NCBI GenBank assembly: GCA_031292215.1
Contig: JARLHO010000110.1
Span: 1 to 47,241 of the forward strand
DNA length: 47,241 nt
Origin: Syntrophobacteraceae bacterium
GTDB lineage: Bacteria > Desulfobacterota > Syntrophobacteria > Syntrophobacterales > Syntrophobacteraceae
Direction of reading: 5' to 3'
Under the pieces are notes generated by a model that had not been told where the DNA came from, did no database searches, and was given only the letters and a program-made list of their open reading frames with translations. Shown piece after piece: positions 2,293-29,290 of this stretch. Position numbers and translations under genes: made by a program. Within the stretch, counting starts at the first letter, position 1, and the number at the start of each line of letters is the position of its first letter.

Positions 2293-3167
2293 AGAGGCTC
2301 TCCTACTTTGAATACCGCGTTCCCAAAACTGTTGAGGAAGCGATCGAACTCTTCGAATCGGGGGGGGCGGACGCAAGGCTTATGGCCGGCGGAACGGATT
2401 TATTGATGAAGATGAAGCACGGGGCAATGACCCCTAAGATTCTCATCTCCCTAAAGAAGATCGATGGACTAGACACTATAGCATTTAGCGAAAAGACCGG
2501 CCTGACCATTGGCGCAACGGCTCTTCTAGCCGATGTGGCAAGCCACCCCGATATCGTCGAGCACTATCCGGCGGTGGCCGAGGCCGCCCGGGGAACGGCC
2601 AACGTGCAGGTGCGAAACATGGGAACAGTGGTTGGAAACCTGTGCAACGCCTCACCGGCCGCAGACAATGCGCCAACACTTCTCGCGATGGGGGCAACGG
2701 TCCACATCCAGGGGGCCGGAGGCAAAAGAGACCTTCCGCTGGAGGAGTTTTTCAAGGGTCCCGGCCTTACCGCTCTCAGGGGAGCAGAGATGGTGACATC
2801 CCTTAGCGTGCCGCTTCCGCCGGCAGGCGCGGGGGCTGCCTACCTCAGTCTTTCCGCCCGGGGCAAACTCGACTGCACAGCGGTTGGGGCCGCGGCGATG
2901 GTGACCATGAAAGGGGATGTCTGTGACGATGTACGGCTGTTCATAGCGTCCTGCGGTCCCACACCTCTTCGGGCGCCCGGGGCCGAGCAGATCATGCGGG
3001 GAAAGCCGATTAGCGACGATATCCTGGAAAAGGCCGGAGAAATAGCCACCGGGGAGGCTTCGCCGATTACCGATCTCAGGGCCAGCGCCGATTACCGGAC
3101 CAGGATAATTGCCGTTCTGGCAGGCAGGGCGATAAAGGCGGCAAGCAAAAGGGCGCTGGCACGATGA
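2289..3167 (+). CDS. Molybdenum hydroxylase, FAD-binding subunit (CoxM-type)
   Basis: This 292-residue subunit binds FAD and links the iron-sulfur clusters to the external acceptor. The start chosen is the ATG overlapping the previous stop; an upstream in-frame extension would run into the 2Fe-2S gene and is not family-like. FAD-binding motifs are visible: AGGTDLL near residue 35, and NMGTVVGNLCNASPAAD in the middle, followed by the CO dehydrogenase flavoprotein C-terminal domain ending in DLRASADYRTRII. It lacks the inserted Cys loop that carries the extra 4Fe-4S cluster in 4-hydroxybenzoyl-CoA reductase, which argues against that enzyme. It is the second gene of a three-gene operon. Confidence 0.92.
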   Translation: MKRLSYFEYRVPKTVEEAIELFESGGADARLMAGGTDLLMKMKHGAMTPKILISLKKIDGLDTIAFSEKTGLTIGATALLADVASHPDIVEHYPAVAEAARGTANVQVRNMGTVVGNLCNASPAADNAPTLLAMGATVHIQGAGGKRDLPLEEFFKGPGLTALRGAEMVTSLSVPLPPAGAGAAYLSLSARGKLDCTAVGAAAMVTMKGDVCDDVRLFIASCGPTPLRAPGAEQIMRGKPISDDILEKAGEIATGEASPITDLRASADYRTRIIAVLAGRAIKAASKRALAR

Positions 3168-3177
3168 ACCGGAAGTG

Positions 3178-3324
3178 GGAAGCGAGAAGCGAGAAGAAGA
3201 CAGGGTGCGCTCCATTCCCGCTCCTTGCTTCCGGCTTCCCCCAAAGAGCTGGGAGCAGGAAGAAGACAGGGGTGACGCTCCATTCCCGCTTCTTGCTCCT
3301 TGCTACCAGCTTCCCCCAAAAAGG
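3178..3324 (+). repeat. Imperfect tandem repeat inside the hydroxylase operon
   Basis: Two related units, 3193-3245 and 3259-3320, share a GAAGAAGACAGG start, a CGCTCCATTCCCGCT core and a CTTCCCCCAAA end. They separate the FAD subunit stop from the ribosome-binding site of the molybdopterin subunit. GAAGC-rich stretches of this style look like intergenic spacer repeats. No protein similarity is seen in any frame. Confidence 0.7.
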
Positions 3325-3333
3325 ATGGAATTA

Positions 3334-7301: not shown

Positions 7302-8468
7302 ATGGCTTTAGCGGATCAGACTTTTGGTTTTTACATTCCCACGGTCACCCTCATGGGAATCGGCGCACACAAGGAACTTGGCGAACAGATCAAGTCGCTG
7401 GGCGGGAAAAAACCCTTTATCTGTACGGACAAGGGAATAACCCAGGCAGGCATTACCGCACGGATCGTGGAATTGATCGAAAAAGATACGGGCCTGCAAC
7501 CTGTTGTCTTCGATGAAACCCATCCCAATCCAACGGATAAAAATGTCCATGACGGCCTCAAAGTCTTTAAAGACAACAATTGTGACATGATTATTTCCCT
7601 TGGGGGCGGCAGTTCGCATGACAATGGCAAGGGCATCGGGATAACGGCCTCCAACGGCGGCAATATCCGAGATTACGAGGGGATAAACAAGTCCTCCAAG
7701 CCCATGCCTCCCTTCATAGCCATAAACACCACGGCCGGCACCGCAAGCGAGATGACACGCTTTTGCATCATCACCGACACCGGTCGCAAGGTGAAAATGG
7801 CCATTGTCGATTGGAGAGTCACCCCCAACCTGGCGATAAACGATCCTTTGCTGATGGCGGGCATGCCCCCCCTGTTGACCGCTGCCACAGGGATGGACGC
7901 CCTGACGCATGCAATCGAAGCTTATGTCTCCACCATAGCAACGCCTGTCACGGATGCATGCGCCCTGAAGGCCATCGACCTCATCAGCAAGTACCTGCGG
8001 GCGGCCGTGGCGTACGGCCAGGACATGGAAGCCCGCGATAAGATGGCCTACGCCGAGTACCTCGCCGGTATGGCCTTCAATAACGCGAGCCTGGGACATG
8101 TGCACGCGATGGCACACCAGTTGGGCGGTTTTTACGATCTGCCCCACGGGGTGTGTAATGCCATTTTGCTGCCTCATGTCGAGCGATTCAACATGATAGC
8201 GAAGATGGGCCGTTTCGCTGACATCGCCAAAGCCATGGGGGAGCCGTTGGAGGGATTGTCCTTGCGTGCAGCGGCAGAACGTGCCCTGGACGCCATAACG
8301 ACCCTTTCTCGCGATGTGGGCATCCCCACGGGGCTAAAGGAGCTGGGAGTAAAGGAAAAGGATCTGCGTGTCATGGCGGAAAACGCGCAGAAAGACGCCT
8401 GCGGATTGACCAATCCACGGTGTCCAAAACTCGATGACGTTATAGAAATTTATAGGTCGGCGCTTTAG
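7302..8468 (+). CDS. Iron-containing alcohol dehydrogenase (type III)
   Basis: This 388-residue protein oxidises primary alcohols or reduces aldehydes with NAD(P). The nucleotide-binding motif is GGGSSHD at 101-107. The metal-binding set is present: Asp199 and His203 in GMDALTHAIEAY, His268 in GHVHAMAHQLGG, and His282 in DLPHG, matching the ligand spacing of E. coli FucO. His272 corresponds to the conserved non-ligand His. The start at 7302 has a GGGAGGAA ribosome-binding site seven bases upstream. It converges on the Wtp transporter genes with only about 34 bases between. Together with the downstream aldehyde oxidoreductase it could oxidise an alcohol to an acid, which is inference from proximity. 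Confidence 0.93.
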   Translation: MALADQTFGFYIPTVTLMGIGAHKELGEQIKSLGGKKPFICTDKGITQAGITARIVELIEKDTGLQPVVFDETHPNPTDKNVHDGLKVFKDNNCDMIISLGGGSSHDNGKGIGITASNGGNIRDYEGINKSSKPMPPFIAINTTAGTASEMTRFCIITDTGRKVKMAIVDWRVTPNLAINDPLLMAGMPPLLTAATGMDALTHAIEAYVSTIATPVTDACALKAIDLISKYLRAAVAYGQDMEARDKMAYAEYLAGMAFNNASLGHVHAMAHQLGGFYDLPHGVCNAILLPHVERFNMIAKMGRFADIAKAMGEPLEGLSLRAAAERALDAITTLSRDVGIPTGLKELGVKEKDLRVMAENAQKDACGLTNPRCPKLDDVIEIYRSAL

Positions 8469-8502
8469 GCTGGAATAGCCGAGGTGACCGGGGGAAGCCT
8501 CT

Positions 8503-9588
8503 TTACCGCGGTGTTTCGTGGGGCACCCAGTGCGCCCCTTGGGCGAGCAGGCCGACGGGCACGCTCGTCCCGCGGTTCAAAGAGGCTGAAAGAGCTTGCG
8601 CTTCGCGTCGCGAGAGGTGAGTCCTTAGTAATTCTCCCCCTTCGTGGCCCAGGGTCAGTTCGACGATTCCCGTGCCGTTGCCGGGGCGAACATCTCTTAC
8701 GGTCAAGGTTCCCCGCCAGATGTATTCCTTGGGTTTTCCCGCGGGAAACAGTTCGATGCTCCAGCCCGGCAAGGTCAGGTAGACCCGAGCGGGCAGATCG
8801 CCCGCCTCGGCTGCAAGGGGCCAAAAATCGGCATAGCCCATCGAAGTAGCCAGCCGTCCGTTTTCCACCCTGGCCTCGATCAGGTTTTCGATGCCCGTCA
8901 GTTCAGCGACACTACGGCTTGCGGGACGGTTGCACACTTCATCGGGGGCGCCTTCCTGCAGGATGCGCCCGCCTTTCATCACCGCCAACCGATCGGATAA
9001 CAGGAAGGCTTCCGCCACATCGTGGGTGATGTGGATAATCGTTACTCCGAGCTCCTCGTGGATCCTTTTTAGTTCGTTTTGAACGCGGCGGCGCAGGGCG
9101 CGGTCAAGAGCGCTCAATGGCTCGTCGAGGAGCAGCACGTAAGGCTTGATCACCAAGGCCCTGGCGAGCGCCACCCGCTGGCGCTCGCCGCCGGAGAGTC
9201 GATTGGGGCGCCGTTTGAGCAGCGGCTCGATTTCAAGAAAGGCGGCCATGTCTTCGACGGCCTTTTTGATTTCCCCGCCCGGACAGCCTTTGAGCCTTAG
9301 CCCGAAGGCAATATTACTGAAAACCGTAAGGTGGGGAAAAAGGGCGGAGTCCTGATAGACTATGCCAAGGCGCCTTTTTTCCGGCGCCAGGCGTGTAGCG
9401 TCCTGGCCCCTGATGTAGATGCGCCCGCTCCTTGGCGTGTGCATTCCGGCGATTGTTTCCAGAAGGACCGTTTTCCCCGTACCCGTGGAACCGAGCAACG
9501 CCAGGTAGGTTCCGGCTTCGACGTGCAACCGGATGTCCCGGAGTTGGAAGTGGCCCAGGTTCAGGCAGATATCTTCAAGTCTTAGCAC
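8503..9588 (-). CDS. wtpC: Tungstate/molybdate ABC transporter ATP-binding protein
   Basis: This 361-residue ATPase powers oxyanion import. Walker A is GSTGTGKT at 33-40, the ABC signature LSGGERQRVALARAL starts at 131, Walker B is LLLDEP near 152-157, the D-loop is SALD, and the switch His is His189 in ITHD. A C-terminal extension after about residue 285 fits the TOBE/Mop-like regulatory domain of ModC/WtpC proteins. The start is a GTG lying 4 bases after the permease stop. Gene order on the minus strand is wtpA-wtpB-wtpC. Tungstate is preferred as substrate because the binding protein is WtpA-like and a W-enzyme is nearby, but molybdate is possible. Confidence 0.87.
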   Translation of the reverse strand: MLRLEDICLNLGHFQLRDIRLHVEAGTYLALLGSTGTGKTVLLETIAGMHTPRSGRIYIRGQDATRLAPEKRRLGIVYQDSALFPHLTVFSNIAFGLRLKGCPGGEIKKAVEDMAAFLEIEPLLKRRPNRLSGGERQRVALARALVIKPYVLLLDEPLSALDRALRRRVQNELKRIHEELGVTIIHITHDVAEAFLLSDRLAVMKGGRILQEGAPDEVCNRPASRSVAELTGIENLIEARVENGRLATSMGYADFWPLAAEAGDLPARVYLTLPGWSIELFPAGKPKEYIWRGTLTVRDVRPGNGTGIVELTLGHEGGELLRTHLSRREAQALSASLNRGTSVPVGLLAQGAHWVPHETPR

Positions 9589-9592
9589 CCGC

Positions 9593-10366
9593 TCAGCGAT
9601 CCTCTTTCTGTGCTGCCAGCCAGCGCAGTCCGGAAAAAATGACCAAACACAGCAAGATCAAAATCGCCGACACGGGAGTCGCATACCGTAGCCCGAAATT
9701 TTCGAAACGCTCCCAGATCAAAATGGGGGCCACCATGGGGTGATAGGTGAGCATCACCACTGCTCCGAATTCGGCGATTCCCCTCGCCCACATAAGGGTT
9801 GCGCCCGAGAGAATCGAGCGCCAGGAGAGCAGCAGACTCACTTTGAAAAACGTCTGCCACGGTGAAGCCCCAAGGGTCCTCGCCACGCATTCCAGGCGCG
9901 GATCGACGGCCAGAAAGCCATCCCTTGCGGCATTGACCAGAAAGGGCAGGGAGACAAAGGCCATGGCCAGGCTGATGCCCGCAACGGTTCCGGTAAAAGT
10001 GATGCCGACCAGGGCAAAGGCCTTGCCAACCCAAAACTCGCGTCCATAGACCATCAGCAGGGCGACTCCCGCAGCGGTATGGGGAATCATCACCGGCAGA
10101 TCGACGATGCCCTGGACCAGGGAGCCTCCCGGGAAATCCCAACGGGCCAGGGCGTAGGCCAGAGGCACTCCCAGCAAAAGGCAGCCCAGTGTCGCCCACA
10201 GGGCCGCGCGCAGGGTCAAAAAGATCGAGTGAAGAACCTCCGGGTCGCAGGCGGTGGATCGCAGGAGCGAAGGGGCCGAGGACACGATCACCTTGGCCAG
10301 CGGCGCCACGATGACAAGAATCAGCACTCCGCCCAGGGCGGCGATAACGATCCTGAAACTTTTCAT
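9593..10366 (-). CDS. wtpB: Tungstate/molybdate ABC transporter permease
   Basis: This 257-residue inner-membrane protein has about six hydrophobic segments. The coupling (EAA) loop is visible as ECVARTLGASPWQTFFKVSL, which contacts the ATPase. A segment EFGAVVMLTYHP further on is typical of ModB/WtpB/CysT permeases. Its ATG overlaps the stop of the binding-protein gene (ATGA), so translation is probably coupled. It forms the channel for the oxyanion delivered by the binding protein upstream in the operon. A sulfate-type permease cannot be excluded from this subunit alone, but the cofactor genes alongside favour Mo/W. Confidence 0.87.
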   Translation of the reverse strand: MKSFRIVIAALGGVLILVIVAPLAKVIVSSAPSLLRSTACDPEVLHSIFLTLRAALWATLGCLLLGVPLAYALARWDFPGGSLVQGIVDLPVMIPHTAAGVALLMVYGREFWVGKAFALVGITFTGTVAGISLAMAFVSLPFLVNAARDGFLAVDPRLECVARTLGASPWQTFFKVSLLLSWRSILSGATLMWARGIAEFGAVVMLTYHPMVAPILIWERFENFGLRYATPVSAILILLCLVIFSGLRWLAAQKEDR

Positions 10367-11337
10367 TTCACCAGCGGCTTGAGTTCCGGCGGCACCTGCG
10401 CGGGATCTCCCGAAACACCCGCCGGATAAATCGCATGCTGCCCGTTTTTCTCCATGATGGCCCGTCCCTGAGGTCCCAGGACGAAAGCCAGGTACTTAAC
10501 CGCCCACTGCCGGTCCGGGGCATCTTTGGGGATCGTAAGGCCGTAGACCATCGGCGCTCCCTTTACGGCAACGAACTCGCCCGGCTTTTTGCCGGAAATC
10601 CGAAGAGAAGCCTGCCGGTAGAAGTCCGCGGAGGCGGGAGAGCCCAGGTTGATTTGATCCGGAAGACGGACGCAGGGCATGTGGTGCTGTTCGCATACCG
10701 ATCTGTAAATAAACACGTAGTCGAGCTGGCCCGACTCCAGAAGAGCGATCAGGTCCGTTTCCTTGGGGCGCACGTTCTCAATCGGGCAGTTGGCCACGAG
10801 TTTTTTGTAAAGCCCGGGAACCTTAAGGTATTTTTCAGCCAACTGCCATGTGAGCAGGGTTCTGTACCCGCACGGATCGGCGTTCGGGTCGGAGTGTCCG
10901 TACTGCACTCCTTTTTCGAGGAGGATCTTGTACCAGTTCGCGCTGTTGATCTCCTTGGCATGTTTTGAATCGGGCCGGTACATTATGGCCATTTCATTGG
11001 TGGCAAAATGGATGTCCCAGGACGCATGGTCGGGGATCAACAGGTTGTCGATGACCGAGTAGTCGGCTGAAGCCATGATGTCGCAGGGCTTTTTGAGGTC
11101 CGTGATTTTCCTGGCGCAAACCCTCGACCCCGCAGCTTCTCGTAACACTTCCACATTCGGATACAATTTATTGAAGGCCTCCGACATCTCCTTTAGGGGA
11201 ATGGACAGGGAACCGGCATTAAAGATGATGATTTTTTCCCGGGCTCTTGCCAACGATGGAAAGGCGGCAAAGGCCGCGCATACAAAGCCAATCAGAAGCA
11301 TAAGGGCGATCTCTTTAAAAAATCCGGTCTTTTTCAT
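10363..11337 (-). CDS. wtpA: Tungstate/molybdate-binding periplasmic protein
   Basis: This is the 324-residue substrate-binding component of the Wtp importer. The start used is the ATG at 11337, six bases after GGAGGG; it begins MKKTGFFKEIALMLLIGF and has a Sec signal peptide probably cut after SLARA. The mature protein has the WtpA-like signatures IIIFNAGSLSIP, KPCDIMASADYSVID and FATNEMAIMY, which line the oxyanion pocket in the archaeal and bacterial WtpA/ModA group. It is the first gene of the wtpABC operon, preceded by a good promoter candidate. Both tungstate and molybdate can be ligands in this family. Confidence 0.88.
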   Translation of the reverse strand: MKKTGFFKEIALMLLIGFVCAAFAAFPSLARAREKIIIFNAGSLSIPLKEMSEAFNKLYPNVEVLREAAGSRVCARKITDLKKPCDIMASADYSVIDNLLIPDHASWDIHFATNEMAIMYRPDSKHAKEINSANWYKILLEKGVQYGHSDPNADPCGYRTLLTWQLAEKYLKVPGLYKKLVANCPIENVRPKETDLIALLESGQLDYVFIYRSVCEQHHMPCVRLPDQINLGSPASADFYRQASLRISGKKPGEFVAVKGAPMVYGLTIPKDAPDRQWAVKYLAFVLGPQGRAIMEKNGQHAIYPAGVSGDPAQVPPELKPLVK

Positions 11338-11392
11338 ACTCCCTCCCTGGTTTTTCCGTTGCAAGACCCTATCCCCTGTCGCACAAATTTGA

Positions 11393-11422
11393 ATCCTAAT
11401 GTGGCGCTCCGTTACTTGTCAA
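11393..11422 (-). promoter_or_regulatory. Candidate sigma-70 promoter of wtpABC
   Basis: On the minus strand a perfect -35 box TTGACA (complement of 11417-11422) is followed after 18 bases by TAGGAT (complement of 11393-11398), four of six matches to TATAAT. It lies about 55 bases before the wtpA start, in the spacer after the QmoA-like gene. The transporter may thus be transcribed separately from that gene. No ModE-type palindrome was recognised. Confidence 0.5.
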
Positions 11423-11473
11423 TACAATCCAGTCGAGTCGGTTAACTCAAAAACATTGCAGTCGGGCCGCGGG

Positions 11474-12745
11474 TTAGTCTTTACTCCTGCAGACCTGGAT
11501 GGCGCGAAGAACGGCGGCGCTCGCTCCCTGAACGCTCGAGGCGACATCGCTTGGACTCGTTGCGCACCCGGCGCCAAATATTCCCGGGATATTGCCCTTG
11601 GCCGAAAGGAATCCATACTCATCGTATGCGGCGGGAGCAGGGATTTTATCCCTGGCCGTGTTCGGAACCATGCCTGCGGCAAGGACTACGAGCTCGAATT
11701 CATCGCGAAGAATTTTCCGAGTGGCCTGGTTTTCAACGACCACGGCGACCAGGCCCGTTTGGGGGTCTTCAGTGATTTGCTCCACTTTTCCTCTTACAAG
11801 GGTAATCCCATCCTCTTGCTCAATGCTTTTGAACTGGGCTTCATAGTTGCCGGGAACACGGATATCGGTGCAAAAGATGGTGATCTGCGCTTTGCGATCT
11901 TGCTTGAGCATATAAATAGCCTGCTTAAGAGAGGCCAGACAGCATACCCCCGAGCAATAGGGCAGAAAGTTTTCATCCCTTGATCCGGCGCACTGAACGA
12001 AGGCAATCTTTCTGAGAGCCTTTCGGTCCGAGGGTCTTGAAAGTATGCCGCCGGTCGGCCCGTTTCTGGATGCTAACCGTTCCAGCACGACATTGGTGAT
12101 CACGTTCCGGAGCTTTCCGGCGCCATGGCGCGGGATGGCGCAAGCATCGAAGGGCGTCCATCCCGTGGCCCATATTATGGCGCCGGCTTCCACCTCGATG
12201 GCGTCAAAGACCATATCGAGATCGACGGCCCCATACCCGCAGGCCGCTTCCACCGCTGCCGCTTCCGGTGTGCCGATGATCCGGGGATCTATCACATAGC
12301 GCATCGGGTATGCGAATTCGTGCGGGAGGTAGGCGGCTTTTAGCGTGCTCAGGCCGTAATCGAACGGGTTCGGGATTCGGGTAACGGCGGTCTCGGAGCA
12401 TTTTCCGCATGCCGTACACTTTTCATTTACATACCGGGGACGCAGCCGGATTGCGACGGTAAAATCTCCCGCTTCCCCTTTTATCTTTTCCACCTCGGAC
12501 ATCGTAAGGACACGGATGAGCGGGTTACTGCGGATGCGGCGAAAATTTATCTCGAGACCGCACGCAGGCGGACAAAACTTTGGAAAGTACTTCTTCATGC
12601 CGGCCACACGCCCGCCAAGCGAGGCCTCCCGTTCCACCAAGATTACCGGGAAACCCGCTTCGGCGGCTTCCACCGCCGCGCTCATTCCGGCTATGCCGCC
12701 TCCGGCGACAAGAATCGTCCGGTTGCCACCCTTAGCCTCACCCAT
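11474..12745 (-). CDS. QmoA/HdrA-like FAD and iron-sulfur oxidoreductase
   Basis: This flavoprotein of about 423 residues resembles QmoA of sulfate reducers and heterodisulfide reductase HdrA. The start at 12745 is preferred because GGGGAG lies eight bases upstream; the open frame before it is not family-like. The FAD fold is GGGIAG at 15-20. QmoA-like stretches follow: KYFPKFCPPACGLEINFRRI (53-72) and RPRYVNEKCTACGKC (102-116). The HdrA-type cluster motif is CAGSRDENFLPYCSGVCC (252-269). Unusually, the 4Fe-4S motif has Cys110, 113 and 116 but no fourth Cys where ACP or VCP is expected. No qmoB, qmoC or aprAB is adjacent. It probably transfers electrons for a neighbouring oxidoreductase; the AOR is the best candidate, by inference. 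Confidence 0.8.
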   Translation of the reverse strand: MGEAKGGNRTILVAGGGIAGMSAAVEAAEAGFPVILVEREASLGGRVAGMKKYFPKFCPPACGLEINFRRIRSNPLIRVLTMSEVEKIKGEAGDFTVAIRLRPRYVNEKCTACGKCSETAVTRIPNPFDYGLSTLKAAYLPHEFAYPMRYVIDPRIIGTPEAAAVEAACGYGAVDLDMVFDAIEVEAGAIIWATGWTPFDACAIPRHGAGKLRNVITNVVLERLASRNGPTGGILSRPSDRKALRKIAFVQCAGSRDENFLPYCSGVCCLASLKQAIYMLKQDRKAQITIFCTDIRVPGNYEAQFKSIEQEDGITLVRGKVEQITEDPQTGLVAVVVENQATRKILRDEFELVVLAAGMVPNTARDKIPAPAAYDEYGFLSAKGNIPGIFGAGCATSPSDVASSVQGASAAVLRAIQVCRSKD

Positions 12746-12872
12746 TGCACATTCTCCCCTACAAAGGACACCTCCCCTGGCGCCGGCCATTTCTTCGGCG
12801 CGGGGGGGAAATGGTGGTTTTGACATTCTGTTGCCAAACCGTTTTACAGGCTGTAGACTTCCCTGTACGGGG

Positions 12873-12902
12873 TTGCCTATCCTCTGGTTAAGCGTGTAGT
12901 AT
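12873..12902 (+). promoter_or_regulatory. Candidate promoter of the moeA operon
   Basis: TTGCCT at 12873-12878 and TAGTAT at 12897-12902 are separated by 18 bases and lie about 100 bases before the moeA start. The match is moderate. The 255-base spacer between the divergent QmoA-like gene and moeA must also hold a minus-strand promoter, which I could not place with confidence. Confidence 0.3.
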
Positions 12903-13000
12903 ATAAGCGAGAATCGCGAATACGGCAATACGTTCCCGGTTCAAACCCTATCCCGCGGACGCGCCAGCCCAAAGAACGGGCTAGAGAAGAGCATCTGAGC

Positions 13001-14257
13001 ATGACGAATTTTCTCACAGTCAAAACGGCCGAAGAGGTCTTGGCATTGATAGAGGGTTTCGAGCCGCTGGCGCCTGAAAGAGTGGGGCTTCATGGCGCGG
13101 TTGGCCGCATCCTTGCCGAGGCGATTACCGCCCCCGAATCCGTTCCTCACTTCAACCGCGCGTTGATGGACGGCTTTGCCGTAAGGGCGCGGGATACCTT
13201 CGGGGCCTCCGAGTCTCAGCCGGCGCTCCTGCGAGATGGAGGCGAGGTGAAAATGGGTGAGGCTTGCGTACCGGAAGGGCTTCCCGGAAACGCTATTGCG
13301 ATTCCCACGGGAGCAATGGTTCCGGCCGGAACCGATTCGGTAGTCATGATCGAGTACACCAGCAGACTCGACAGCGAGTCGATAGAGGTCATGAAGCCGG
13401 TGGCGCCGGGAGAAAACATACTTTTGGCAGGAGAAGACATTCAGGCCGGCCAACCCGTGTTTTCCACCGGCCACTTTTTGCGGCCCCAGGATATCGGGGT
13501 CCTCGCGGTTCTTGGCATCGACTCGGTCAAAGTCTATTGCAAACCGCGCGTCGCCATCCTGTCTACCGGAGACGAAATCGTGCCGGTTTCCACCATTGCG
13601 CTTCCACCGGGGAAAATCAGGGACATCAATTCTTATACGCTGGCGGCCCAGGTCTTGGAGGTCGGGGCCATCACGGGAACCATCGAGGTGGTCGGAGACG
13701 ATCTGGATTGTCTTGTCGCAGCGTGCCGCCGGGCGCTGGCGGACCACGATGTCATTCTTATCTCCGGAGGAAGCTCGGTGGGCGTAAGGGATTTGACCGT
13801 CCTGGCCCTGGATTCTCTTGCGGAGGCAGACCTGCTCGTCCACGGGGTCGCGGTTCGCCCCGGAAAACCCACCATCCTCGCCCGGGCGGGCCGCAAGATC
13901 CTCTGGGGGCTGCCCGGTCACCCGATATCGGCCATGACGATCTGCCGGACCTTTGTCTTGCCTTGCCTCTACAGCCTACAGGGTCTCAAAGGGAAACCGG
14001 CCTGGAAAGATGCCGGCGCAGAGCGGGCGGTGCTCACCCGAAAGCTTCCATCGGTCCACGGGAGAACCGATTACGTCCCGGTCGTGTTACGCGAGACGCC
14101 GGAGGGGCTCGCGGCGACCCCGGTATTTGGAAAATCGGCCATGATTGGCGCTCTGGCAAGGTCGGATGGCTACATCGTAATCGATCGACACGTCGAAGGA
14201 CTGGATGCGGGCGCCGAGGTAAGGGTCCATCTTTTTCACGCAAACCTCGGCAGATGA
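13001..14257 (+). CDS. moeA: Molybdopterin molybdenumtransferase
   Basis: MoeA inserts molybdenum or tungsten into adenylated molybdopterin. The protein is 418 residues, normal for a stand-alone MoeA. The family motifs are in order: PHFNRALMDGFAVRARDT (the usual AMDGYA region), the domain III motif ILSTGDEIVP, SGGSSVGVRD, and the GLPGHPISAM motif before the C-terminal beta-barrel domain. It begins a plus-strand run followed by a MoaD-like gene, a ThiF/MoeB-like gene, a second MoeA fused to other domains and the AOR gene. Archaea and some anaerobes carry two MoeA copies, thought to split molybdenum and tungsten handling; which copy does which here cannot be read. Confidence 0.92.
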   Translation: MTNFLTVKTAEEVLALIEGFEPLAPERVGLHGAVGRILAEAITAPESVPHFNRALMDGFAVRARDTFGASESQPALLRDGGEVKMGEACVPEGLPGNAIAIPTGAMVPAGTDSVVMIEYTSRLDSESIEVMKPVAPGENILLAGEDIQAGQPVFSTGHFLRPQDIGVLAVLGIDSVKVYCKPRVAILSTGDEIVPVSTIALPPGKIRDINSYTLAAQVLEVGAITGTIEVVGDDLDCLVAACRRALADHDVILISGGSSVGVRDLTVLALDSLAEADLLVHGVAVRPGKPTILARAGRKILWGLPGHPISAMTICRTFVLPCLYSLQGLKGKPAWKDAGAERAVLTRKLPSVHGRTDYVPVVLRETPEGLAATPVFGKSAMIGALARSDGYIVIDRHVEGLDAGAEVRVHLFHANLGR

Positions 14258-14300
14258 CGCTTCGCGGTCGGTTCACGGGCCACCCGGGAGAAAAATCCCC

Positions 14301-14537
14301 ATGCGAATAGAGGTTCGGTTGTATGCCACTTTGAGGCGATTTGCTCCCACCGCGGAAGGGGGCATTCTTTTTGTCGATGTGGCCGAGGGCGCCACGGCGG
14401 CCGATGCGATCGCGACCGTCAAGGTCGATGCCGATGAAGTTCATCTCTTGATGATCAACGGACGAAACTGCCCTGCGGGCCAGGCGCTGTGCGAAGGGGA
14501 TCGATTGGGTCTATTCCCTCCGATAGGCGGTGGTTGA
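14301..14537 (+). CDS. MoaD/ThiS-like ubiquitin-fold sulfur carrier
   Basis: This 78-residue protein begins MRIEVRLYATLRRFAP, a typical MoaD first strand, and ends in PPIGGG. The C-terminal Gly-Gly is the site adenylated and thiocarboxylated by an E1-like enzyme; here it is followed by one extra Gly. LLMINGR in the middle matches the NG turn of the beta-grasp fold. The gene for an E1-like protein overlaps its stop by one base (TGATG), so the two are almost certainly partners. The likely role is to donate sulfur for the pterin dithiolene, perhaps specifically for the nearby AOR. A role in another sulfur-transfer pathway is possible. Confidence 0.85.
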   Translation: MRIEVRLYATLRRFAPTAEGGILFVDVAEGATAADAIATVKVDADEVHLLMINGRNCPAGQALCEGDRLGLFPPIGGG

Positions 14538-15268
14538 TGGGAAGGAAAAACTCGCTGGAGTTGCTTGCCGCAGGTGAAATCCCGCTAAGGTATCAAAGAA
14601 ATTTCGGAACTCTTGGCATCGAGGGGCAGATGCGTTTGCTAAAATCCCGCGTCGCCGTTGTCGGGGCGGGCGGTTTGGGCGGAAACGCGATCGAACTGCT
14701 CGCAAGACTGGGGGTGGGGTTTCTGCGCATTATCGACGGCGACTGTTTCGAGGTGCACAATCTCAACCGGCAGTTGCTCGCAACCGAGGCAACCCTCGGG
14801 ATGAACAAGGCGAGAGTTGCTGCGGCGAGGGTGGCCGAGGTTAACTCCGAGGTTCAAACCCACGCCCTGCCGGAGATGGTGACAGAGGAAAATGCGAGGC
14901 AATTGCTTACCGGGATGGACGTGGTTGTCGACGCCCTGGATTGCATAGACTGCCGGTTGCTGATTTCCCGAACGGCGCAGGAGCTAAAAATTCCGCTGGT
15001 CCACGCGGCCATTGCCGGATGCACCGGTCAGGTCGCGACGATTTTGCCCGATGGTCCCGGACTGGAAAAGATCTACCGGACAGCGGGCCCTTCGGGGAAG
15101 GGAATCGAGACCGTATTGGGAACGCCTGCGCCAACTGCGGCGCTTGCCGCGGCAATTCAAGCCCAGGAGGTGGTTAAAGTACTGACCGGGATTGGTGAAC
15201 CCCTTGCCGGCAAGTTGTTATATTTCGACACGGGGCTACATATTTATGAAATGGTGAATTTGGGATAG
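14537..15268 (+). CDS. ThiF/MoeB/HesA-like E1 adenylyltransferase
   Basis: This 243-residue protein would adenylate the C-terminal Gly of the MoaD-like protein encoded just before it. The ATP-binding motif is GAGGLG at 43-48, with IDGDCFEVHNLNRQ next, the Asp/Asn/Arg residues used by MoeB and ThiF. The four zinc-binding Cys of MoeB (two CxxC pairs) are absent, and no rhodanese domain follows, so it is a minimal E1. Its ATG overlaps the previous stop by one base. Similar stand-alone ThiF-like proteins are found beside AOR genes in anaerobes, which fits the location. The start was set by the overlap. Confidence 0.85.
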   Translation: MGRKNSLELLAAGEIPLRYQRNFGTLGIEGQMRLLKSRVAVVGAGGLGGNAIELLARLGVGFLRIIDGDCFEVHNLNRQLLATEATLGMNKARVAAARVAEVNSEVQTHALPEMVTEENARQLLTGMDVVVDALDCIDCRLLISRTAQELKIPLVHAAIAGCTGQVATILPDGPGLEKIYRTAGPSGKGIETVLGTPAPTAALAAAIQAQEVVKVLTGIGEPLAGKLLYFDTGLHIYEMVNLG

Positions 15269-15351
15269 TTGGAAAAGTCGCCCGTTGGCTGGAGGCGGCC
15301 GGGTGCGACATCGCGGGCAATAAACATAGTGTAGAAGGGGCTTATTTTTCC

Positions 15352-15384
15352 ATTGTACACGATTTTTACCAGCGCATGGACAAT
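15352..15384. promoter_or_regulatory. Imperfect inverted repeat upstream of the HTH-MoeA fusion gene
   Basis: ATTGTACA (15352-15359) and TGGACAAT (15377-15384) are inverted with one mismatch and a 17-base gap. The pair lies 50-80 bases before the start of the fusion gene whose N-terminus looks like a DNA-binding domain. An operator is possible; the evidence is position and symmetry only. Confidence 0.25.
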
Positions 15385-15434
15385 AGGCACGCTGCGTAGA
15401 TTGCAGTTGCTTTCCGCGCTTTACGGGGTGTAGA

Positions 15435-17687
15435 ATGTCACGGAACCACGGGATTGTAGACTGCATGAAAACAGGGCTGCAAAAGCAAATGGAACTCATT
15501 GAGAAACACTTGGGCGGAGCGGGGAAAGCGGCCCTGGCGGCCGGAGTCACGGCCACGTCGTGGTCGAGGTGGAAGGCGGGACATCCTCTGCCCGGGGGGT
15601 CGAGCCTAAAGCTCATAGAAAAGCTCCATGAGGAGGCATTGAGCTCCATGCCGGCTCAGCAGGAAGCCGACACTGCCGCGGATCGGGCCTCGGGCGATCC
15701 CATGACCGGGTCGGTCAAAAAGACTAAGAGAAACGTCTACCTCAAGATGAAAACTCTCCGGGACGCTCGCGCGATCTGGGAGGAGCGGACCGGGGCGCTG
15801 CGGACGGTGGTGGAAACGATCCCTGCGGCCGCAAGTGTTGGCCGCGTCACTGCAAAGCCGATTTTTTCGATTCGGTCGGCGCCCCACTATCATGGCGCCG
15901 CAATGGACGGCTATGCGGTTCGCGCCCGGGATACCTACGGGGCAGGCGATACCTCGCCCGTTGCGCTGCGTGTCGGGGAAACCGCCCGGGCGGTCGATAC
16001 CGGCGATATGCTTCCCGAAGGTACGGACGCGGTAATCATGATCGAGGATGTCGAAAATATCTCGGCCCGGGAGATAGAGATCCGAGCGGCGGCCTTCCCG
16101 TGGCAACACGTGCGCAAGGTGGGGGAAGACATCGTCTCAGGGGAATTGCTTCTGCCTCAAAATCATGTTTTGCGCCCGGCCGACGCGGGTTCTTTACTGG
16201 CGGCGGGAATCCTTTCCGTAGAGGTTTTTGGAAAGCCCAAAGTATTTCTCCAACCCACGGGAGACGAGATCATTCCGGCTGAAAAGGCTGCAGAGGCCAA
16301 GCCGGGGGATATAATAGAATTTAACGGCGCCATTTTGTTCGGGATGGTCGAGGAATGCGGCGGAGCGCCGACCCTGGGCGCCATTGAGCCCGACGAGTAT
16401 GAATCGTTAAAGGAAGCGCTGCTAAGCGGGACCGATTCGGCCGATGTCGTTTTGATGATGGCCGGCTCTTCGGCCGGGTCGGGGGACTTCATCTCGTCGG
16501 TCATCGAAGAGGTTGGTGAAGTGCTGACGCACGGCGTTGCCATGATGCCCGGCAAACCGGTCATACTGGGAATGGTGAACGGAAAACCCGTGGTCGGGCT
16601 ACCGGGTTATTCGGTGTCGGCGATAATGGCTTTCGAACAGTTTGTGAGGCCGCTTCTCTACTCTTTCCAGGGAACCTGCGACCCGGCTTTCCCGACCATT
16701 TCGGCAACCCTTGGACGGAAGCTGCCTTCCAAGCTGGGGCTGGAAGAATTTGCGCGGGTGATTCTTGGCAGAATCGAGGGCAAAGTCGTGGCAATGCCCC
16801 TGCAGAGGGGGGCGGCCATAATCACCTCGCTTACGCGCGCCGACGGAATCTTGCAGATCCCGCAGGAGTTGGAAGGCGTTGAGGAGGGGGCCGAAGTCGA
16901 AATCAGACTCCTTCGGCCCAAAGAGCTGCTCGATTACACTCTGCTGACAATTGGAAGCCACGACAACACCATTGACCTCATTGCCAATGAACTCAAAGGC
17001 CGTGACGGCAGGCTCCATCTTTCTTCGAGCAATGTGGGCAGCCTCGGAGGGTTGATGGCGCTCCGTCGAGGACAGGCCCATTTTGCAGGCTCCCATCTCC
17101 TCGACACGCAAACGGGAGAGTACAACTATTCGTACGTCGAACGTCATTTGAAAGGGACTCCCGTTCGGATTGTCCAACTGGCGATGCGGGAGCAGGGGTT
17201 GATCCTGGCCAAGGGCAATCCTAAGAAGATAACTGGAATAGAAGACATTCTGCGACCGGATGTGGTCTTTATTAATCGACAGGCCGGTTCGGGAACGCGT
17301 GTGCTTTTCGACTACAGTATCGGGCAGGTGGGCCTTTTAACCGATCAAATCAAGGGTTACGACCAGGAAGAATTTACTCACATGGGCGTTGCCATCGGGG
17401 TGCTTAGCGGACGGGCCGATACGGGGATGGCAATCTATTCGGCGGCCAGGGCCCTGGACCTTGATTTCATACCGTTTGCCCGTGAGCGCTATGACCTTGT
17501 GATAGCCGAGAGCGCCTGGCGGGATTTTAAGATCGAGACGACCCTGGAAATCGTCTCTTCGGATTCTTTCCGCCGCAAGGCGACCGCCATGGGAGGCTAC
17601 GATGTTTCCCACTCCGGCAAGGTAATGGGGGTCTGGGACGGGGAGCGATGGGTTTGCAGGGAAGAAGGAACCGATGGGGGCTGTTGA
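15435..17687 (+). CDS. HTH-MoeA-periplasmic-binding-domain fusion protein
   Basis: This 750-residue protein has three parts. Residues 11-70 resemble a helix-turn-helix of the XRE/phage-repressor type (AALAAGVTATSWSRWKAGHP). Residues about 105-495 are a full MoeA: HYHGAAMDGYAVRARDT, TGDEI at 275-279, GSSAGSGD, and GLPGYSVSA. Residues about 500-735 are a PBP-like domain (LLTIGSHDNTIDLIAN ... NRQAGSGTRVLFD), the type found fused to MoeA in archaea and anaerobes and thought to bind an anion or ligand. The N-terminal HTH is the unusual addition. A start at Met11 (15465) would keep all domains; neither start has a strong ribosome-binding site. A metal-sensing cofactor enzyme or repressor is a reasonable hypothesis. 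Confidence 0.82.
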   Translation: MSRNHGIVDCMKTGLQKQMELIEKHLGGAGKAALAAGVTATSWSRWKAGHPLPGGSSLKLIEKLHEEALSSMPAQQEADTAADRASGDPMTGSVKKTKRNVYLKMKTLRDARAIWEERTGALRTVVETIPAAASVGRVTAKPIFSIRSAPHYHGAAMDGYAVRARDTYGAGDTSPVALRVGETARAVDTGDMLPEGTDAVIMIEDVENISAREIEIRAAAFPWQHVRKVGEDIVSGELLLPQNHVLRPADAGSLLAAGILSVEVFGKPKVFLQPTGDEIIPAEKAAEAKPGDIIEFNGAILFGMVEECGGAPTLGAIEPDEYESLKEALLSGTDSADVVLMMAGSSAGSGDFISSVIEEVGEVLTHGVAMMPGKPVILGMVNGKPVVGLPGYSVSAIMAFEQFVRPLLYSFQGTCDPAFPTISATLGRKLPSKLGLEEFARVILGRIEGKVVAMPLQRGAAIITSLTRADGILQIPQELEGVEEGAEVEIRLLRPKELLDYTLLTIGSHDNTIDLIANELKGRDGRLHLSSSNVGSLGGLMALRRGQAHFAGSHLLDTQTGEYNYSYVERHLKGTPVRIVQLAMREQGLILAKGNPKKITGIEDILRPDVVFINRQAGSGTRVLFDYSIGQVGLLTDQIKGYDQEEFTHMGVAIGVLSGRADTGMAIYSAARALDLDFIPFARERYDLVIAESAWRDFKIETTLEIVSSDSFRRKATAMGGYDVSHSGKVMGVWDGERWVCREEGTDGGC

Positions 17688-17725
17688 AGCCAACTGCTTT
17701 TCATTTCAAGGGACAAGGAAACGAT

Positions 17726-19462
17726 ATGGACAAAATTCTGCGGATCGACATGGGCGCCGAAGCCGGGCCCAAAGTGACTGAGGAGCCTTTAGGAGTTTAC
17801 GCCGGGTTTGGCGGTCGAGCCCTTACCTCGGCGGTGGTCTCCAAGGAAGTTCCCCCTCTTTGCCACCCCCTGGGAGCCGAAAACAAGCTGGTTATCGCCC
17901 CAGGTCTATTGAGCGGTACGATAGCTTCGATGTCCGGGCGGCTGTCGGTGGGATGCAAGAGCCCGCTAACGGGGGGCATAAAGGAATCCAACGCAGGCGG
18001 ACAGGGTGCGCAGGTGCTGGCGCGCATGGGCTACGCCGCCATCGTACTGGAGGGAAAACCCGAAAAAGACGATCTCTATAAAATTGTCATAAACGGCGAC
18101 GGCGTAAAGATATCTGTCGACAACAGCCTGAGGATGCTTCCCAACTATGACCTGGTCGACAGGATGAAGCAGCAGCACGGAGAAAAGATAACGTGCATTT
18201 CCATCGGTCCGGCCGGGGAGATGAAAATGAGCGCCGCCTCGATTGCCGTGACCGACATGGAATTGAGGCCGACTCGCCATGCGGGCCGTGGAGGGGTTGG
18301 CGCGGTCATGGGCGCCAAATGCGTTAAAGTTATCGTCCTCGACGACACCGGCATGAAGATGCGCGCTCCCAAGGACCCCGAAAAGTATAAAGAGGCCAAT
18401 AAAAGGTGGGTGGAAGGGCTGAAGAAACACCCGGTTACCGGGCAGGGCCTGCCGGCCTACGGTACTAACGTTTTGACAAATGTTCTCAATGAGGCCGGGG
18501 GGTATCCGACTTACAATTTCAAGCAGGGCCGCTTCGACGGCGCCTCCAAGATCAGCGGCGAGACCCAGGCGGAAACCGAAACGGCCCGAGGCGGTCTGGC
18601 GACTCACGGATGCCATCGGGGGTGCGTCATTCAGTGCTCCGGGACATTTAACGACAAAGACGGCCATTTTTTGACCAAACAACCCGAATACGAGACCGTG
18701 TGGTCTCATGGCGGGCAGTGCGGGATCTGCGATCTGGACGCCATTGCGCAGATGGACTTCATGGAGGACAATTACGGCCTGGACACAATCGAGATGGGAG
18801 TAGCCCTCGGGGTGGCCATGGAAGGGGGCCTTCTTAAATTCGGCGACGCTCAGGGCGCCATCGGGTTGCTTGAGGAAGTTGGCAAAGGCACCCCGGTCGG
18901 ACGCATCCTGGGCAACGGCGCGGCGGTTACCGGTAAAGTCTTCGGCGTGGAAAGAGTGCCCGTGGTAAAGGGGCAGGCACTGCCGGCCTACGATCCGCGC
19001 GCGGTCCAGGGCATCGGCGTAACTTACGCCACAAGCACCATGGGCGCCGACCATACCGCAGGGTACGCCGTGGCGACCAACATCCTCGGTGTAGGCGGTA
19101 AAGTCGATCCGTTGAAACCCGAAGGCCAGGTGGAGCTGTCTAGGAATCTGCAAATCGCCACAGCCGCGATTGACGCCACGGGAATGTGTCTGTTCATTGC
19201 TTTCGCCGTGCTCGATCAACCCGAGACCTTCCAGGCTCTTTTGGATCTTTTGAATGCCTTCTATGGGCTGAACCTTACTGCCGACGGAGTCGTGACACTT
19301 GGCAAAACCATCCTGACCATGGAAAGGGATTTCAACGCCAAGGCAGGGTTTACCTCAGAGCACGACCGGCTGCCGCAATTTTTCAAAACGGAGAAGGTGC
19401 CTCCGCACAATGTGGTCTTCGAGGTTAAAGACGAAGATCTCGACAAAGTGTTCAACTGGTAA
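17726..19462 (+). CDS. Aldehyde:ferredoxin oxidoreductase, tungsten-containing
   Basis: AOR oxidises aldehydes to carboxylic acids and reduces ferredoxin, or runs in reverse, using a tungsten bis-pterin and one 4Fe-4S cluster. The 578-residue protein starts at an ATG six bases after AAGGAA. The cluster ligands are Cys296, Cys300 and Cys304 (GCHRGCVIQC) and Cys488 (DATGMC). The spacing of the first two is C-x3-C, as in some bacterial AORs, not the C-x2-C of Pyrococcus AOR. MGADHTAG at 439-446 contains the conserved His and pterin-site residues. Cofactor-assembly genes precede it and a conserved-looking companion follows. The preferred aldehyde is unknown. Confidence 0.93.
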   Translation: MDKILRIDMGAEAGPKVTEEPLGVYAGFGGRALTSAVVSKEVPPLCHPLGAENKLVIAPGLLSGTIASMSGRLSVGCKSPLTGGIKESNAGGQGAQVLARMGYAAIVLEGKPEKDDLYKIVINGDGVKISVDNSLRMLPNYDLVDRMKQQHGEKITCISIGPAGEMKMSAASIAVTDMELRPTRHAGRGGVGAVMGAKCVKVIVLDDTGMKMRAPKDPEKYKEANKRWVEGLKKHPVTGQGLPAYGTNVLTNVLNEAGGYPTYNFKQGRFDGASKISGETQAETETARGGLATHGCHRGCVIQCSGTFNDKDGHFLTKQPEYETVWSHGGQCGICDLDAIAQMDFMEDNYGLDTIEMGVALGVAMEGGLLKFGDAQGAIGLLEEVGKGTPVGRILGNGAAVTGKVFGVERVPVVKGQALPAYDPRAVQGIGVTYATSTMGADHTAGYAVATNILGVGGKVDPLKPEGQVELSRNLQIATAAIDATGMCLFIAFAVLDQPETFQALLDLLNAFYGLNLTADGVVTLGKTILTMERDFNAKAGFTSEHDRLPQFFKTEKVPPHNVVFEVKDEDLDKVFNW

Positions 19463-19551
19463 GGACTAGCTGTTCCCTGCCCTCCTTTCCGGGGTTTTCC
19501 GGGGGGGAGGGGGCGGGGAATTTTCCTCGGTTGTGGATGGGTAGCGTGCCA

Positions 19552-20160
19552 ATGAGCGAGAAAATAGAAGGTCTTCCCGCAGCGGAGCTTCAAGTCATGG
19601 TGGGCGCCGCCGGATTTCCGCGGTTTTTGCAGCTCCTGCAGCAGGGAATTATTCTTTGGAGGGAAGTTGGTTGCAGCGTACGTTCATTTTTGCATGACCA
19701 ACTGCGACTGAGTCCCCAATTTGTCGAGGAAAACATTCAAACGATATTTCTGGATGGAAAGCCGGTTGACGACCTGGACAGGGCCCGTGTGAAAGACGGA
19801 TGCACGATTGCCCTTTCCGCGGCGATGCCGGGATTGGTTGGCGCCACCATGCGCCGCGGCGGCTATTATGCATCGCTTCGCGCCCAGATTTCACACAGGC
19901 AGGAGGGGGAAAACGGCGGGGAAACGGCAAAGGGGCGCGTTACTTTGAAGCTTTTTAATCTCGTCGCCCGTTCACTGGGGAAAACGTTCCTGGAGGGTGG
20001 TTTTTTCGTTACGCGAAAGACTCTTGAAGATTTTATACGGTGGAGTCAACCGATGGGAGATATCCAGGCGGTCCTCGGGGGAGCGCCGTTCGACTGGAAG
20101 GCTTTCCAGGCGGGTAAGAGCGCAGACGAGCTTGTCCGTTTGCGGTTGAAGATCGTTTAG
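19552..20160 (+). CDS. Uncharacterised AOR-linked protein with a beta-grasp-like region
   Basis: I cannot assign a named family to this roughly 202-residue protein. It follows the AOR gene in the same direction after about 90 bases. Residues 41-93 look like a ubiquitin-type beta-grasp fold: a strand and helix (SVRSFLHDQL), a strand ending in a turn (TIFLDGKPVDDL) and a final VKDGCTIALSAAMPG, comparable to the NG and DGD turns of MoaD/ThiS. A double Gly (RRGGYY) follows near residue 103 but is internal, not terminal. The C-terminal 80 residues are mixed polar and hydrophobic. It might help mature or regulate the AOR; this is inference. The start is uncertain: TTG at 19531 and ATG at 19537 are alternatives, none with a strong ribosome-binding site. 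Confidence 0.65.
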   Translation: MSEKIEGLPAAELQVMVGAAGFPRFLQLLQQGIILWREVGCSVRSFLHDQLRLSPQFVEENIQTIFLDGKPVDDLDRARVKDGCTIALSAAMPGLVGATMRRGGYYASLRAQISHRQEGENGGETAKGRVTLKLFNLVARSLGKTFLEGGFFVTRKTLEDFIRWSQPMGDIQAVLGGAPFDWKAFQAGKSADELVRLRLKIV

Positions 20161-27310: not shown

Positions 27311-27388
27311 GGCCGGGGGGGGAGGCGAGGCGATGAGCGCGGCAGTTTTTCTCCAGCTTTTACCCGGGCGCCCGTTGGGGGGGCGAAC

Positions 27389-29242: not shown

Positions 29243-29290
29243 AATAGAGGCGCATTCGCGGCCACCGGCCCGAACGCCCCTGGAGCCGAA

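What the first reader, a model, noticed from the sequence alone, without database searches (positions are those of the whole stretch)
7302..20160. Contiguous Mo/W uptake, cofactor-assembly and AOR block
Within 13 kb the window holds an alcohol dehydrogenase, wtpABC, a QmoA/HdrA-like flavoprotein, moeA, a MoaD-like protein, a ThiF-like E1, an HTH-MoeA-PBP fusion, an AOR and an unnamed AOR-linked protein. The mix of transport, metal insertion and sulfur donation suggests a self-contained supply line for tungsten enzymes. The individual families are known; the combination and the last protein are what deserve attention. The metal preference is inferred.
Basis: partly seen in the sequence, partly recalled or inferred. 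Interest (0 to 1): 0.7.

Follow-up and report, generated by a model that had tools for sequence, protein, structure and literature searches.

The report
Unnamed twin-domain partner of tungsten enzyme
Next to a predicted tungsten-dependent aldehyde enzyme lies a gene for an unnamed protein that looks like two sulfur-carrier-type domains joined together; it travels with one branch of that enzyme family through several groups of anaerobic bacteria and is a testable candidate for the helper that finishes the enzyme.

Summary
Most of it is known in kind: AOR beside MoaD, an E1 and MoeA was described in 2006, and the ThiS-like gene was recently named WorX. The full combination recurs in one near relative and, rearranged, in a few distant genomes. 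It is not self-contained: MoaC, MoaE and a third MoeA lie on other contigs.

The interesting part is the last protein (LP, 19552-20160, 202 aa). It reaches no Pfam or NCBIfam family. AOR is directly upstream of it in 65 of 80 named loci, from Desulfobacterota, Spirochaetes, Nitrospirae and others. In 297 genomes of the phylum LP occurs in 33 of 38 that hold a close AOR and in 7 of the other 259. Profile comparison and a predicted structure show an N-terminal MoaD/ThiS-like domain and a probable second copy, joined by the most conserved stretch of the family. None of 107 sequences ends in the Gly-Gly that a sulfur carrier needs. A 2023 review says no enzyme-specific chaperone has been found for AOR-family enzymes; LP is a good, untested candidate. 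The association is shown; the chaperone role is inferred.

The parts
19552..20160 (+). LP, the unnamed AOR-linked protein, 202 aa: MoaD/ThiS-like domain, conserved tail/linker, probable second beta-grasp domain
   Evidence: family; next to AOR; domains; conservation; start
19582..19818 (+). LP domain 1 (residues 10-88, counted from the Ser after the start Met): MoaD/ThiS-like beta-grasp
   Evidence: AF2 model; ThiS/MoaD chains lead the VIA list at modest Z; profile match to AOR-linked MoaD
19804..19890 (+). LP residues 84-112: end of domain 1 and tail/linker, the most conserved stretch of the family, mostly low confidence in the model from residue 91
   Evidence: 2.84 bits against 0.95-2.49 elsewhere; pLDDT about 60 for residues 91-120
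19927..20157 (+). LP domain 2 (residues 125-201): probable degenerate copy of domain 1
   Evidence: Same order of elements in the model; domain 1 against domain 2 and self-comparison; reverse comparison and MoaD comparison negative
17726..19462 (+). AOR (WorL type, no small or FAD subunit gene beside it)
   Evidence: AFOR_N and AFOR_C; tree
15435..17687 (+). MoeA-PBP_like fusion with about 95 extra N-terminal residues
   Evidence: HTH not confirmed
14537..15268 (+). ThiF/MoeB-like E1; start overlaps the MoaD stop by one base
14301..14537 (+). MoaD/ThiS-like sulfur carrier ending in Gly-Gly-Gly (WorX type)
13001..14257 (+). MoeA
11474..12928 (-). HdrA/QmoA-like flavoprotein, divergent from moeA
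   Evidence: HdrA2, below cut-off
10363..11364 (-). WtpA tungstate-binding protein
   Evidence: above cut-offs
9593..10366 (-). WtpB-like permease
   Evidence: best match, below cut-off
8503..9588 (-). WtpC-like ATPase
   Evidence: best match, below cut-off
7302..8468 (+). Iron-containing alcohol dehydrogenase

Best explanation
This is an AOR gene cluster with its cofactor genes; the part without a name is LP. Shown: LP is a conserved family with a MoaD/ThiS-like beta-grasp domain, a very conserved tail/linker and a second domain that is probably a degenerate copy of the first, and it is encoded directly behind AORs of one clade in several phyla. Inferred: LP is an AOR-specific maturation factor. 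A sulfur carrier such as the neighbouring 78-aa MoaD acts through a free C-terminal tail that enters a partner's active site (established knowledge). In LP that tail is not free: it runs on into a second domain and carries invariant Pro-Gly, Gly and Arg. The likely action is that LP docks on apo-AOR and uses this stretch and its basic residues to hold or guide the phosphate-bearing pyranopterin (W-bis-MPT) into the enzyme, then leaves. The neighbours would supply tungstate (WtpABC), sulfur (MoaD with ThiF) and metal insertion (MoeA proteins); Fe-ADH would exchange aldehyde with AOR.
For: AOR directly upstream on the same strand in 65 of 80 named loci (63; L083 and the edge fragment in L104) and 23 of 38 phylum-draw loci. 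LP in 33 of 38 genomes with an AOR of 64% identity or more, 6 of 73 with only a more distant one, 1 of 186 with none at E 1e-150 (Fisher p 1.1e-31, kinship ignored; 32 of 36 against 8 of 261 at a 69% cut). In a tree of 106 AORs one branch with support 100 holds 51 of 56 rows from LP loci, 6 of 6 from genomes with LP elsewhere, 6 of 44 without LP. 0 of 40 control AOR loci have LP. MoaD-like domain 1. The most conserved stretch is residues 84-112, mostly of low model confidence, as expected of a piece that orders on a partner or ligand. 0 of 107 sequences end in Gly-Gly. A review says no enzyme-specific chaperone has been found for AOR-family enzymes though one may be expected (PMC10609526, passage).
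Against: No binding or cofactor data. Four genomes of family f2 keep an AOR of this clade without any LP detected (G037, G073, G106, G233), so LP is not always needed; a fifth, G042, is 67% complete with its AOR at a contig edge. Eight of 38 phylum-draw LP loci have no AOR in the flank; seven of those genomes have one elsewhere, G276 only more distant AOR-family genes. Domain 2 is only weakly supported as a repeat: reverse comparison 6.4, against MoaD 4.4, poor isolated model and insignificant fold matches. Structure matches for domain 1 are at modest Z (at most 4.4) and Foldseek finds nothing at E 0.001. A subunit role fits the genetics nearly as well.
Confidence: 0.45

Rival explanations
1. 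LP is a stable accessory or regulatory subunit of this AOR clade rather than a maturation factor, for example controlling access to the active site or docking an electron partner.
For: Tight one-to-one linkage directly behind AOR and clade specificity are just as expected of a subunit.
Against: MoaD-like build next to MoaD and ThiF points to cofactor assembly. LP lies away from AOR in 8 of 38 phylum-draw loci and is absent from f2 genomes that keep the AOR. Characterised class I WORs consist of WorL alone (PMC13328260, passages); whether any of them belongs to the LP clade was not tested.
Confidence: 0.25
2. LP is a variant sulfur carrier or a decoy in the MoaD-ThiF sulfur path, perhaps cut after the internal Gly-Gly at residues 102-103 to free a carrier.
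For: Domain 1 is MoaD-like; the internal Gly-Gly is 86-87% conserved; ThiF and MoaD often lie beside LP (27 and 46 of 80). In L059 LP is fused to an inositol-monophosphatase-family domain that resembles CysQ of sulfur assimilation (name recalled).
Against: 0 of 107 sequences end in Gly-Gly. Divergent members have Asp-Ser, Asn-Ser or Gly-Ser at the internal site. A normal Gly-Gly-ending MoaD usually lies nearby. LP tracks an AOR clade, whereas MoaD and ThiF also accompany AORs without LP (19 and 7 of 40). No protease gene was recognised among recurring neighbours, though these were only partly annotated.
Confidence: 0.12
3. The whole block is a dedicated, self-contained tungsten supply line, with LP as one more part of it.
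For: Tungstate-binding WtpA passes its cut-offs; L069 keeps HdrA-like, MoeA, MoaD, ThiF, MoeA-PBP, AOR, LP in the same order; comparable sets in L064, L065, L199, L202, L205, L207, L210.
Against: MoaC, MoaE and a third MoeA are elsewhere; most block members are absent from most LP loci; a Mo-hydroxylase-type enzyme lies just upstream.
Confidence: 0.1
4. LP and AOR are neighbours by common descent only and share no function.
For: Gene order can be inherited; 8 of 38 phylum-draw LP loci have no AOR in the flank.
Against: Adjacency spans several phyla and holds next to AORs outside the main clade in divergent orientation (L057, L059, L060); seven of the eight unlinked genomes still hold an AOR.
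Confidence: 0.08

Closest known systems
AOR-linked MoaD/MoeB neighbourhoods (Iyer, Burroughs and Aravind 2006, PMC1779556, passages)
   Different: LP, WtpABC beside it and the MoeA-PBP fusion are not mentioned in the passages seen
WorX (ThiS-like) and thiF beside class I WORs (PMC13328260, 2026, outline and passages)
   Same: The window's 78-aa MoaD and its ThiF
   Different: WorX is described as ThiS-like; LP is longer, matches no ThiS family and does not end in Gly-Gly
MoaD/ThiS sulfur carriers
   Same: Domain 1 of LP by profile and predicted fold
   Different: No free Gly-Gly end; conserved linker and a second domain
AOR-N, two tandem beta-grasp copies that bind metallopterin, perhaps from MoaD-like precursors (Burroughs et al. 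2007, PMC1949818, sections 15 and 24 read)
   Same: Two beta-grasp-type domains in tandem, tied to tungstopterin
   Different: No sequence similarity between LP and AOR-N found
Moco chaperones of the XdhC and bisPGD-enzyme families (PMC10609526, passages)
   Same: Proposed role: enzyme-specific cofactor delivery
   Different: Other proteins, other enzyme families; the review says none has been found for AOR-family enzymes

Membership tests
MoaD/ThiS sulfur carriers (for LP) | Beta-grasp fold related to MoaD/ThiS | tested here: met
   Domain 1 only: profile score 28.6 against a best of 12.3 in 40 column shuffles, P 1.4e-5 with whole LP, ThiS and MoaD chains lead the VIA list at Z up to 4.4. Domain 2 inconclusive
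MoaD/ThiS sulfur carriers (for LP) | Free C-terminal Gly-Gly | tested here: not met
   0 of 107 sequences
MoaD/ThiS sulfur carriers (for LP) | Match to the Pfam or NCBIfam models above cut-off | tested here: not met
   73 members scanned; no ThiS/MoaD model among the listed matches at E up to 1
MoaD/ThiS sulfur carriers (for LP) | Adenylation and sulfur loading by an E1 | not testable with these tools
   ThiF near 27 of 80 named loci, but a normal MoaD is often there too
AOR-N domain (for LP) | Sequence relation to AOR-N | tested here: not met
   hhalign probability at most 2.5 in either direction for LP or its halves
AOR-N domain (for LP) | Same tandem beta-grasp arrangement | tested here: inconclusive
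   Two units in the model; no AOR chain in the VIA list, which excludes nothing
Enzyme-specific cofactor chaperone (for LP) | Needed for loading of its enzyme and not part of it | not testable with these tools
   Only genetic linkage and co-occurrence
Aldehyde ferredoxin oxidoreductase | AFOR_N and AFOR_C domains | tested here: met
   195.3 and 271.4 bits
Aldehyde ferredoxin oxidoreductase | Tungsten in the active site | not testable with these tools
   Inferred from family and from WtpA
WtpABC tungstate transporter | Curated WtpA, WtpB and WtpC cut-offs | tested here: inconclusive
   WtpA above both cut-offs; WtpB 282.9 of 340 and WtpC 309.3 of 440 bits
WorX-type ThiS-like protein (14301-14537) | ThiS/MoaD domain, terminal Gly-Gly, next to AOR with thiF | tested here: met
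HTH-MoeA-PBP fusion (15435-17687) | MoeA and PBP_like domains | tested here: met
HTH-MoeA-PBP fusion (15435-17687) | Helix-turn-helix at the N-terminus | tested here: inconclusive
   Pfam none, PDB best E 0.97, PHROGs best E 0.0064

The most novel reading that the evidence does not exclude
LP is the missing enzyme-specific chaperone of an AOR clade: a free-standing tandem of MoaD-like domains that holds the bis-pyranopterin tungsten cofactor and hands it to apo-AOR, and so resembles the MoaD-derived, dimer-recognising precursor from which the tandem beta-grasp N-domain of AOR has been proposed to descend.
Probability: 0.25. Interest if true: 0.85.

Novelty: new variant of a known kind. Interest (0 to 1): 0.58.

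Why it matters
Cofactor-loading chaperones are known for the xanthine oxidase and Mo/W-bisPGD families; a 2023 review (PMC10609526, passage) states that none has been found for AOR-family enzymes. LP gives a concrete gene, a defined clade and a conserved stretch to test. If right, it would help heterologous production of tungsten aldehyde oxidoreductases and bear on how AOR's own pterin-binding domain arose. The rest of the block is ordinary.

Tried and rejected
HTH in the MoeA-PBP fusion: not confirmed. LP as a stand-alone AOR-N domain: no profile similarity. AOR-LP fusion in L083 (one open frame of 753 aa): rejected, because runs of N in that record read as X and can hide the stop. In L059 the 1106-aa frame holds LP and a phosphatase-family domain at its end; only the last 467 aa are taken as a gene, since the part before runs opposite the AOR gene. 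Sub-threshold Pfam matches of LP (DUF2521, E 0.055; 12 scattered families in 73 members, each in 1-2 members) and NCBIfam matches (13 families, each in 1-3 members): treated as chance. PDB by sequence: none with single LP, two unrelated-looking matches with the profile (E 0.026 and 1.9). Foldseek with whole LP and with domain 2: no match at E 0.001. Viral contigs: 7 stretches matched a pattern, none encodes a relative. tRNA: none in the window. Promoter and terminator scans are at the shuffled level. Literature searches listed no paper that I could recognise as describing LP; the library is open-access PMC only, and I saw abstracts, outlines, passages or two sections of seven papers, so this is not proof of absence. 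PMC12096430 has no occurrence of six maturation terms. PMC13197769: outline and abstract only.

Limits of the counts. The named loci are the best 80 of 214 relatives, so biased towards the window's LP. The 64% identity line was chosen after seeing the table; at 69% the result is 32 of 36 against 8 of 261. The 40 control AOR loci are 40 of the 73 genomes with only more distant AORs, mostly the less distant ones. The tree is one FastTree run; every second named locus was used, five duplicates and short or gappy rows were dropped, and 'LPadj' means an AOR in a locus found through LP. Alignment A3 holds the window and 72 of 80 named loci: L074 (N), L093 (broken frame) and six near-duplicates or arbitrary omissions (L078, L082, L095, L100, L101, L124) were left out. 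One 468-aa sequence was dropped before the conservation count (106 of 107).
Full report
1. The observation. WtpA passes its NCBIfam cut-offs; WtpB and WtpC are the best matches but below theirs; the HdrA-like protein is far below the HdrA2 cut-off. The MoaD stop and the ThiF start overlap by one base. The last gene, called LP here, is best started at the ATG at 19552, 89 bases behind the AOR stop.

2. The block against its genome. It lacks the early pterin steps: MoaC is on C60, MoaE on C165, a third MoeA on C74, two more ThiS/MoaD proteins on C61 and C23. So it is not self-contained. A Mo-hydroxylase-type enzyme lies just upstream (large subunit 3175-5628; XdhB-like FAD subunit 2202-3167), so the cofactor genes may serve more than AOR.

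3. The block in relatives. Profile and phmmer searches over the fetched loci find, in 80 named LP loci, AOR in 65, MoaD in 46, ThiF in 27, and MoeA, MoeA-PBP, HdrA-like, WtpA and WtpB in 1 each. Forty AOR loci without LP hold MoaD in 19, ThiF in 7, MoeA and MoeA-PBP in 5, Fe-ADH in 1. In the 37 named loci with over 6 kb on both sides of LP the counts are AOR 31, MoaD 23, ThiF 15, MoeA, MoeA-PBP and HdrA-like 1, WtpA, WtpB and Fe-ADH 0. The close relative L069 keeps the order HdrA-like, MoeA, MoaD, ThiF, MoeA-PBP, AOR, LP, and comparable sets recur in L064, L065, L199, L202, L205, L207 and L210 in other orders. So MoaD and ThiF are common AOR neighbours, the MoeA pair an occasional one, the rest local. 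This kind of neighbourhood was described in 2006 (PMC1779556, passages), and a ThiS-like gene next to thiF and a WOR was called WorX in 2026 (PMC13328260, outline and passages). In Aromatoleum, aorD and aorE resemble MoaD (PMC6365974, passages).

4. LP is a family. A single-sequence search finds LP in 39 of 297 genomes of the phylum, one copy each; a profile finds 40, the extra one being cut off by a contig edge beside AOR (G113). The scan of the genome collection found 214 relatives and kept the best 80; by record titles 6 are Spirochaetes, 8 Nitrospirae, and one each Acidobacteria, Aminicenantes and Fermentibacteria, the rest mostly Desulfobacterota and Geobacter kin. Of 73 aligned members none reaches a Pfam or NCBIfam family convincingly.

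5. LP goes with one AOR clade. In the 80 named loci AOR is directly upstream on the same strand in 65 (63; L083 and the edge fragment in L104), directly downstream in L134, and not seen in 14, of which L092, L136, L138 and L141 have under 1.5 kb of contig upstream. In the 38 phylum-draw loci: 23 directly upstream (22, L040 by an edge fragment), 3 divergent and adjacent (L057, L059, L060), 1 directly downstream (L033), 2 at 0.7 and 4.3 kb (L065, L064), 1 at a contig edge (L044), 8 without AOR in the flank. Seven of those eight genomes have an AOR elsewhere at E 1e-150; G276 has only more distant AOR-family genes. By genome: LP in 33 of 38 with an AOR of 64% identity or more, 6 of 73 with only a more distant AOR, 1 of 186 with none at E 1e-150; Fisher p 1.1e-31 with kinship ignored. 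The five misses are G037, G073, G106 and G233, all of family f2, and G042. In a tree of 106 AORs one branch with support 100 holds 63 rows: 51 of 56 from LP loci, 6 of 6 from genomes with LP elsewhere, 6 of 44 without LP, four of these from f2. The LP label needs 7 changes against a shuffled mean of 35.7 (0 of 500 as low). None of the 40 control and 5 f2 AOR loci has an LP match. The window's genome has four AOR-family genes and a single LP, beside this one.

6. What LP looks like. The AF2 model (73 sequences; pLDDT 86.5, pTM 0.82) has two units with similar order of strands and helices, residues 10-88 and 125-201, joined by a stretch of low confidence. The second look at solved structures is led by ThiS (1zud, Z 4.4, 58 residues, rmsd 2.4) and lists many ThiS, MoaD, Urm1 and SAMP1 chains, on domain 1 and at modest Z; Foldseek alone gives nothing significant. 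Profile comparison of domain 1 with 26 AOR-linked MoaD sequences runs over the whole MoaD length (score 28.6; best of 40 column shuffles 12.3; P 1.4e-5 with whole LP). Domain 1 against domain 2 scores 18.4 (best of 39 shuffles 7.0), and LP against itself shows the repeat (P 7.9e-5). But domain 2 against domain 1 gives 6.4 and against MoaD 4.4, and domain 2 alone models less well (pLDDT 75.5, pTM 0.57) with insignificant fold matches. So domain 1 as MoaD-like is well supported; the duplication is likely, not proven.

7. The business end. In 106 aligned sequences the most conserved segment is residues 84-112 (2.84 bits; other segments 0.95-2.49), with Asp72, Pro92, Gly93, Gly96 and Arg109 at 100% (rounded) and Gly31, Ser88, Arg100, Lys132, Phe134 and Asn135 at 98-99%. 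In the profile alignment this region falls on the tail of MoaD. MoaD's tail works because its end is free (established knowledge); in LP it is not, and 0 of 107 sequences end in Gly-Gly. LP is thus MoaD-like in build but not a sulfur carrier of the usual kind unless it is cut, for which I saw no sign.

8. Interpretation. A free-standing MoaD-like protein with a probable second copy, encoded with an enzyme whose bis-pyranopterin cofactor must be inserted, with an invariant basic tail that is not ordered on its own in the model, is best read as a maturation factor of AOR. A review says that no enzyme-specific chaperone has been found for AOR-family enzymes although one may be expected (PMC10609526, passage). 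Burroughs et al. (PMC1949818, sections 15 and 24) describe AOR's own N-domain as two tandem beta-grasp copies that may have arisen from MoaD-like precursors recognising metallopterins as dimers; LP has that kind of build, but no sequence relation to AOR-N was found. A subunit role fits nearly as well. The f2 genomes, which keep the AOR and lack LP, show that any dependence is not absolute.

9. Verdict.

Noticed in passing
L041, L102, L106, L110, L113, L119, L125, L130, L133, L140, L142, L143, L146, L147, upstream of AOR-LP: Mycofactocin-type genes (MftF glycosyltransferase above its cut-off; EtfA/EtfB, FixC, FixX and OYE-like proteins) lie directly upstream of AOR-LP, mostly in Geobacter kin: a possible alcohol-to-acid route. 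Representatives only were scanned.
   Followed up: partly
L049, L051, L065, L085, L091, L104, L105, L115, L120, L121, L122, L123, L124, L128, L129 (cluster c9): A radical SAM/SPASM protein beside AOR-LP in 15 loci; the one scanned (L085) passes TIGR04311 (putative metalloenzyme maturase) and also matches the tungsten oxidoreductase maturase TIGR04317 below cut-off.
   Followed up: partly
L059:9446-10849 (+): LP is fused in frame to an inositol-monophosphatase-family domain (PF00459, 165.9 bits), similar to CysQ by recall; one genome only.
   Followed up: partly
L156, L157, L158, L159, L162: In relatives of the window where LP is not beside AOR, AOR lies next to Fe-ADH genes and clusters c5/c6 (c6 begins like a response regulator), suggesting regulated alcohol/aldehyde metabolism.
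   Followed up: no
2202-5628 (+): XdhB-like FAD subunit and Mo-hydroxylase large subunit just upstream of the block.
   Followed up: no
25931-32146 (+): Trehalose-synthase-type glycosyltransferase and two large proteins with partial alpha-amylase matches.
   Followed up: no
L070:6034-6153 (+): In the second-closest relative only a 40-residue match to the MoeA-PBP fusion is left before AOR, so the block varies already among near relatives.
   Followed up: no
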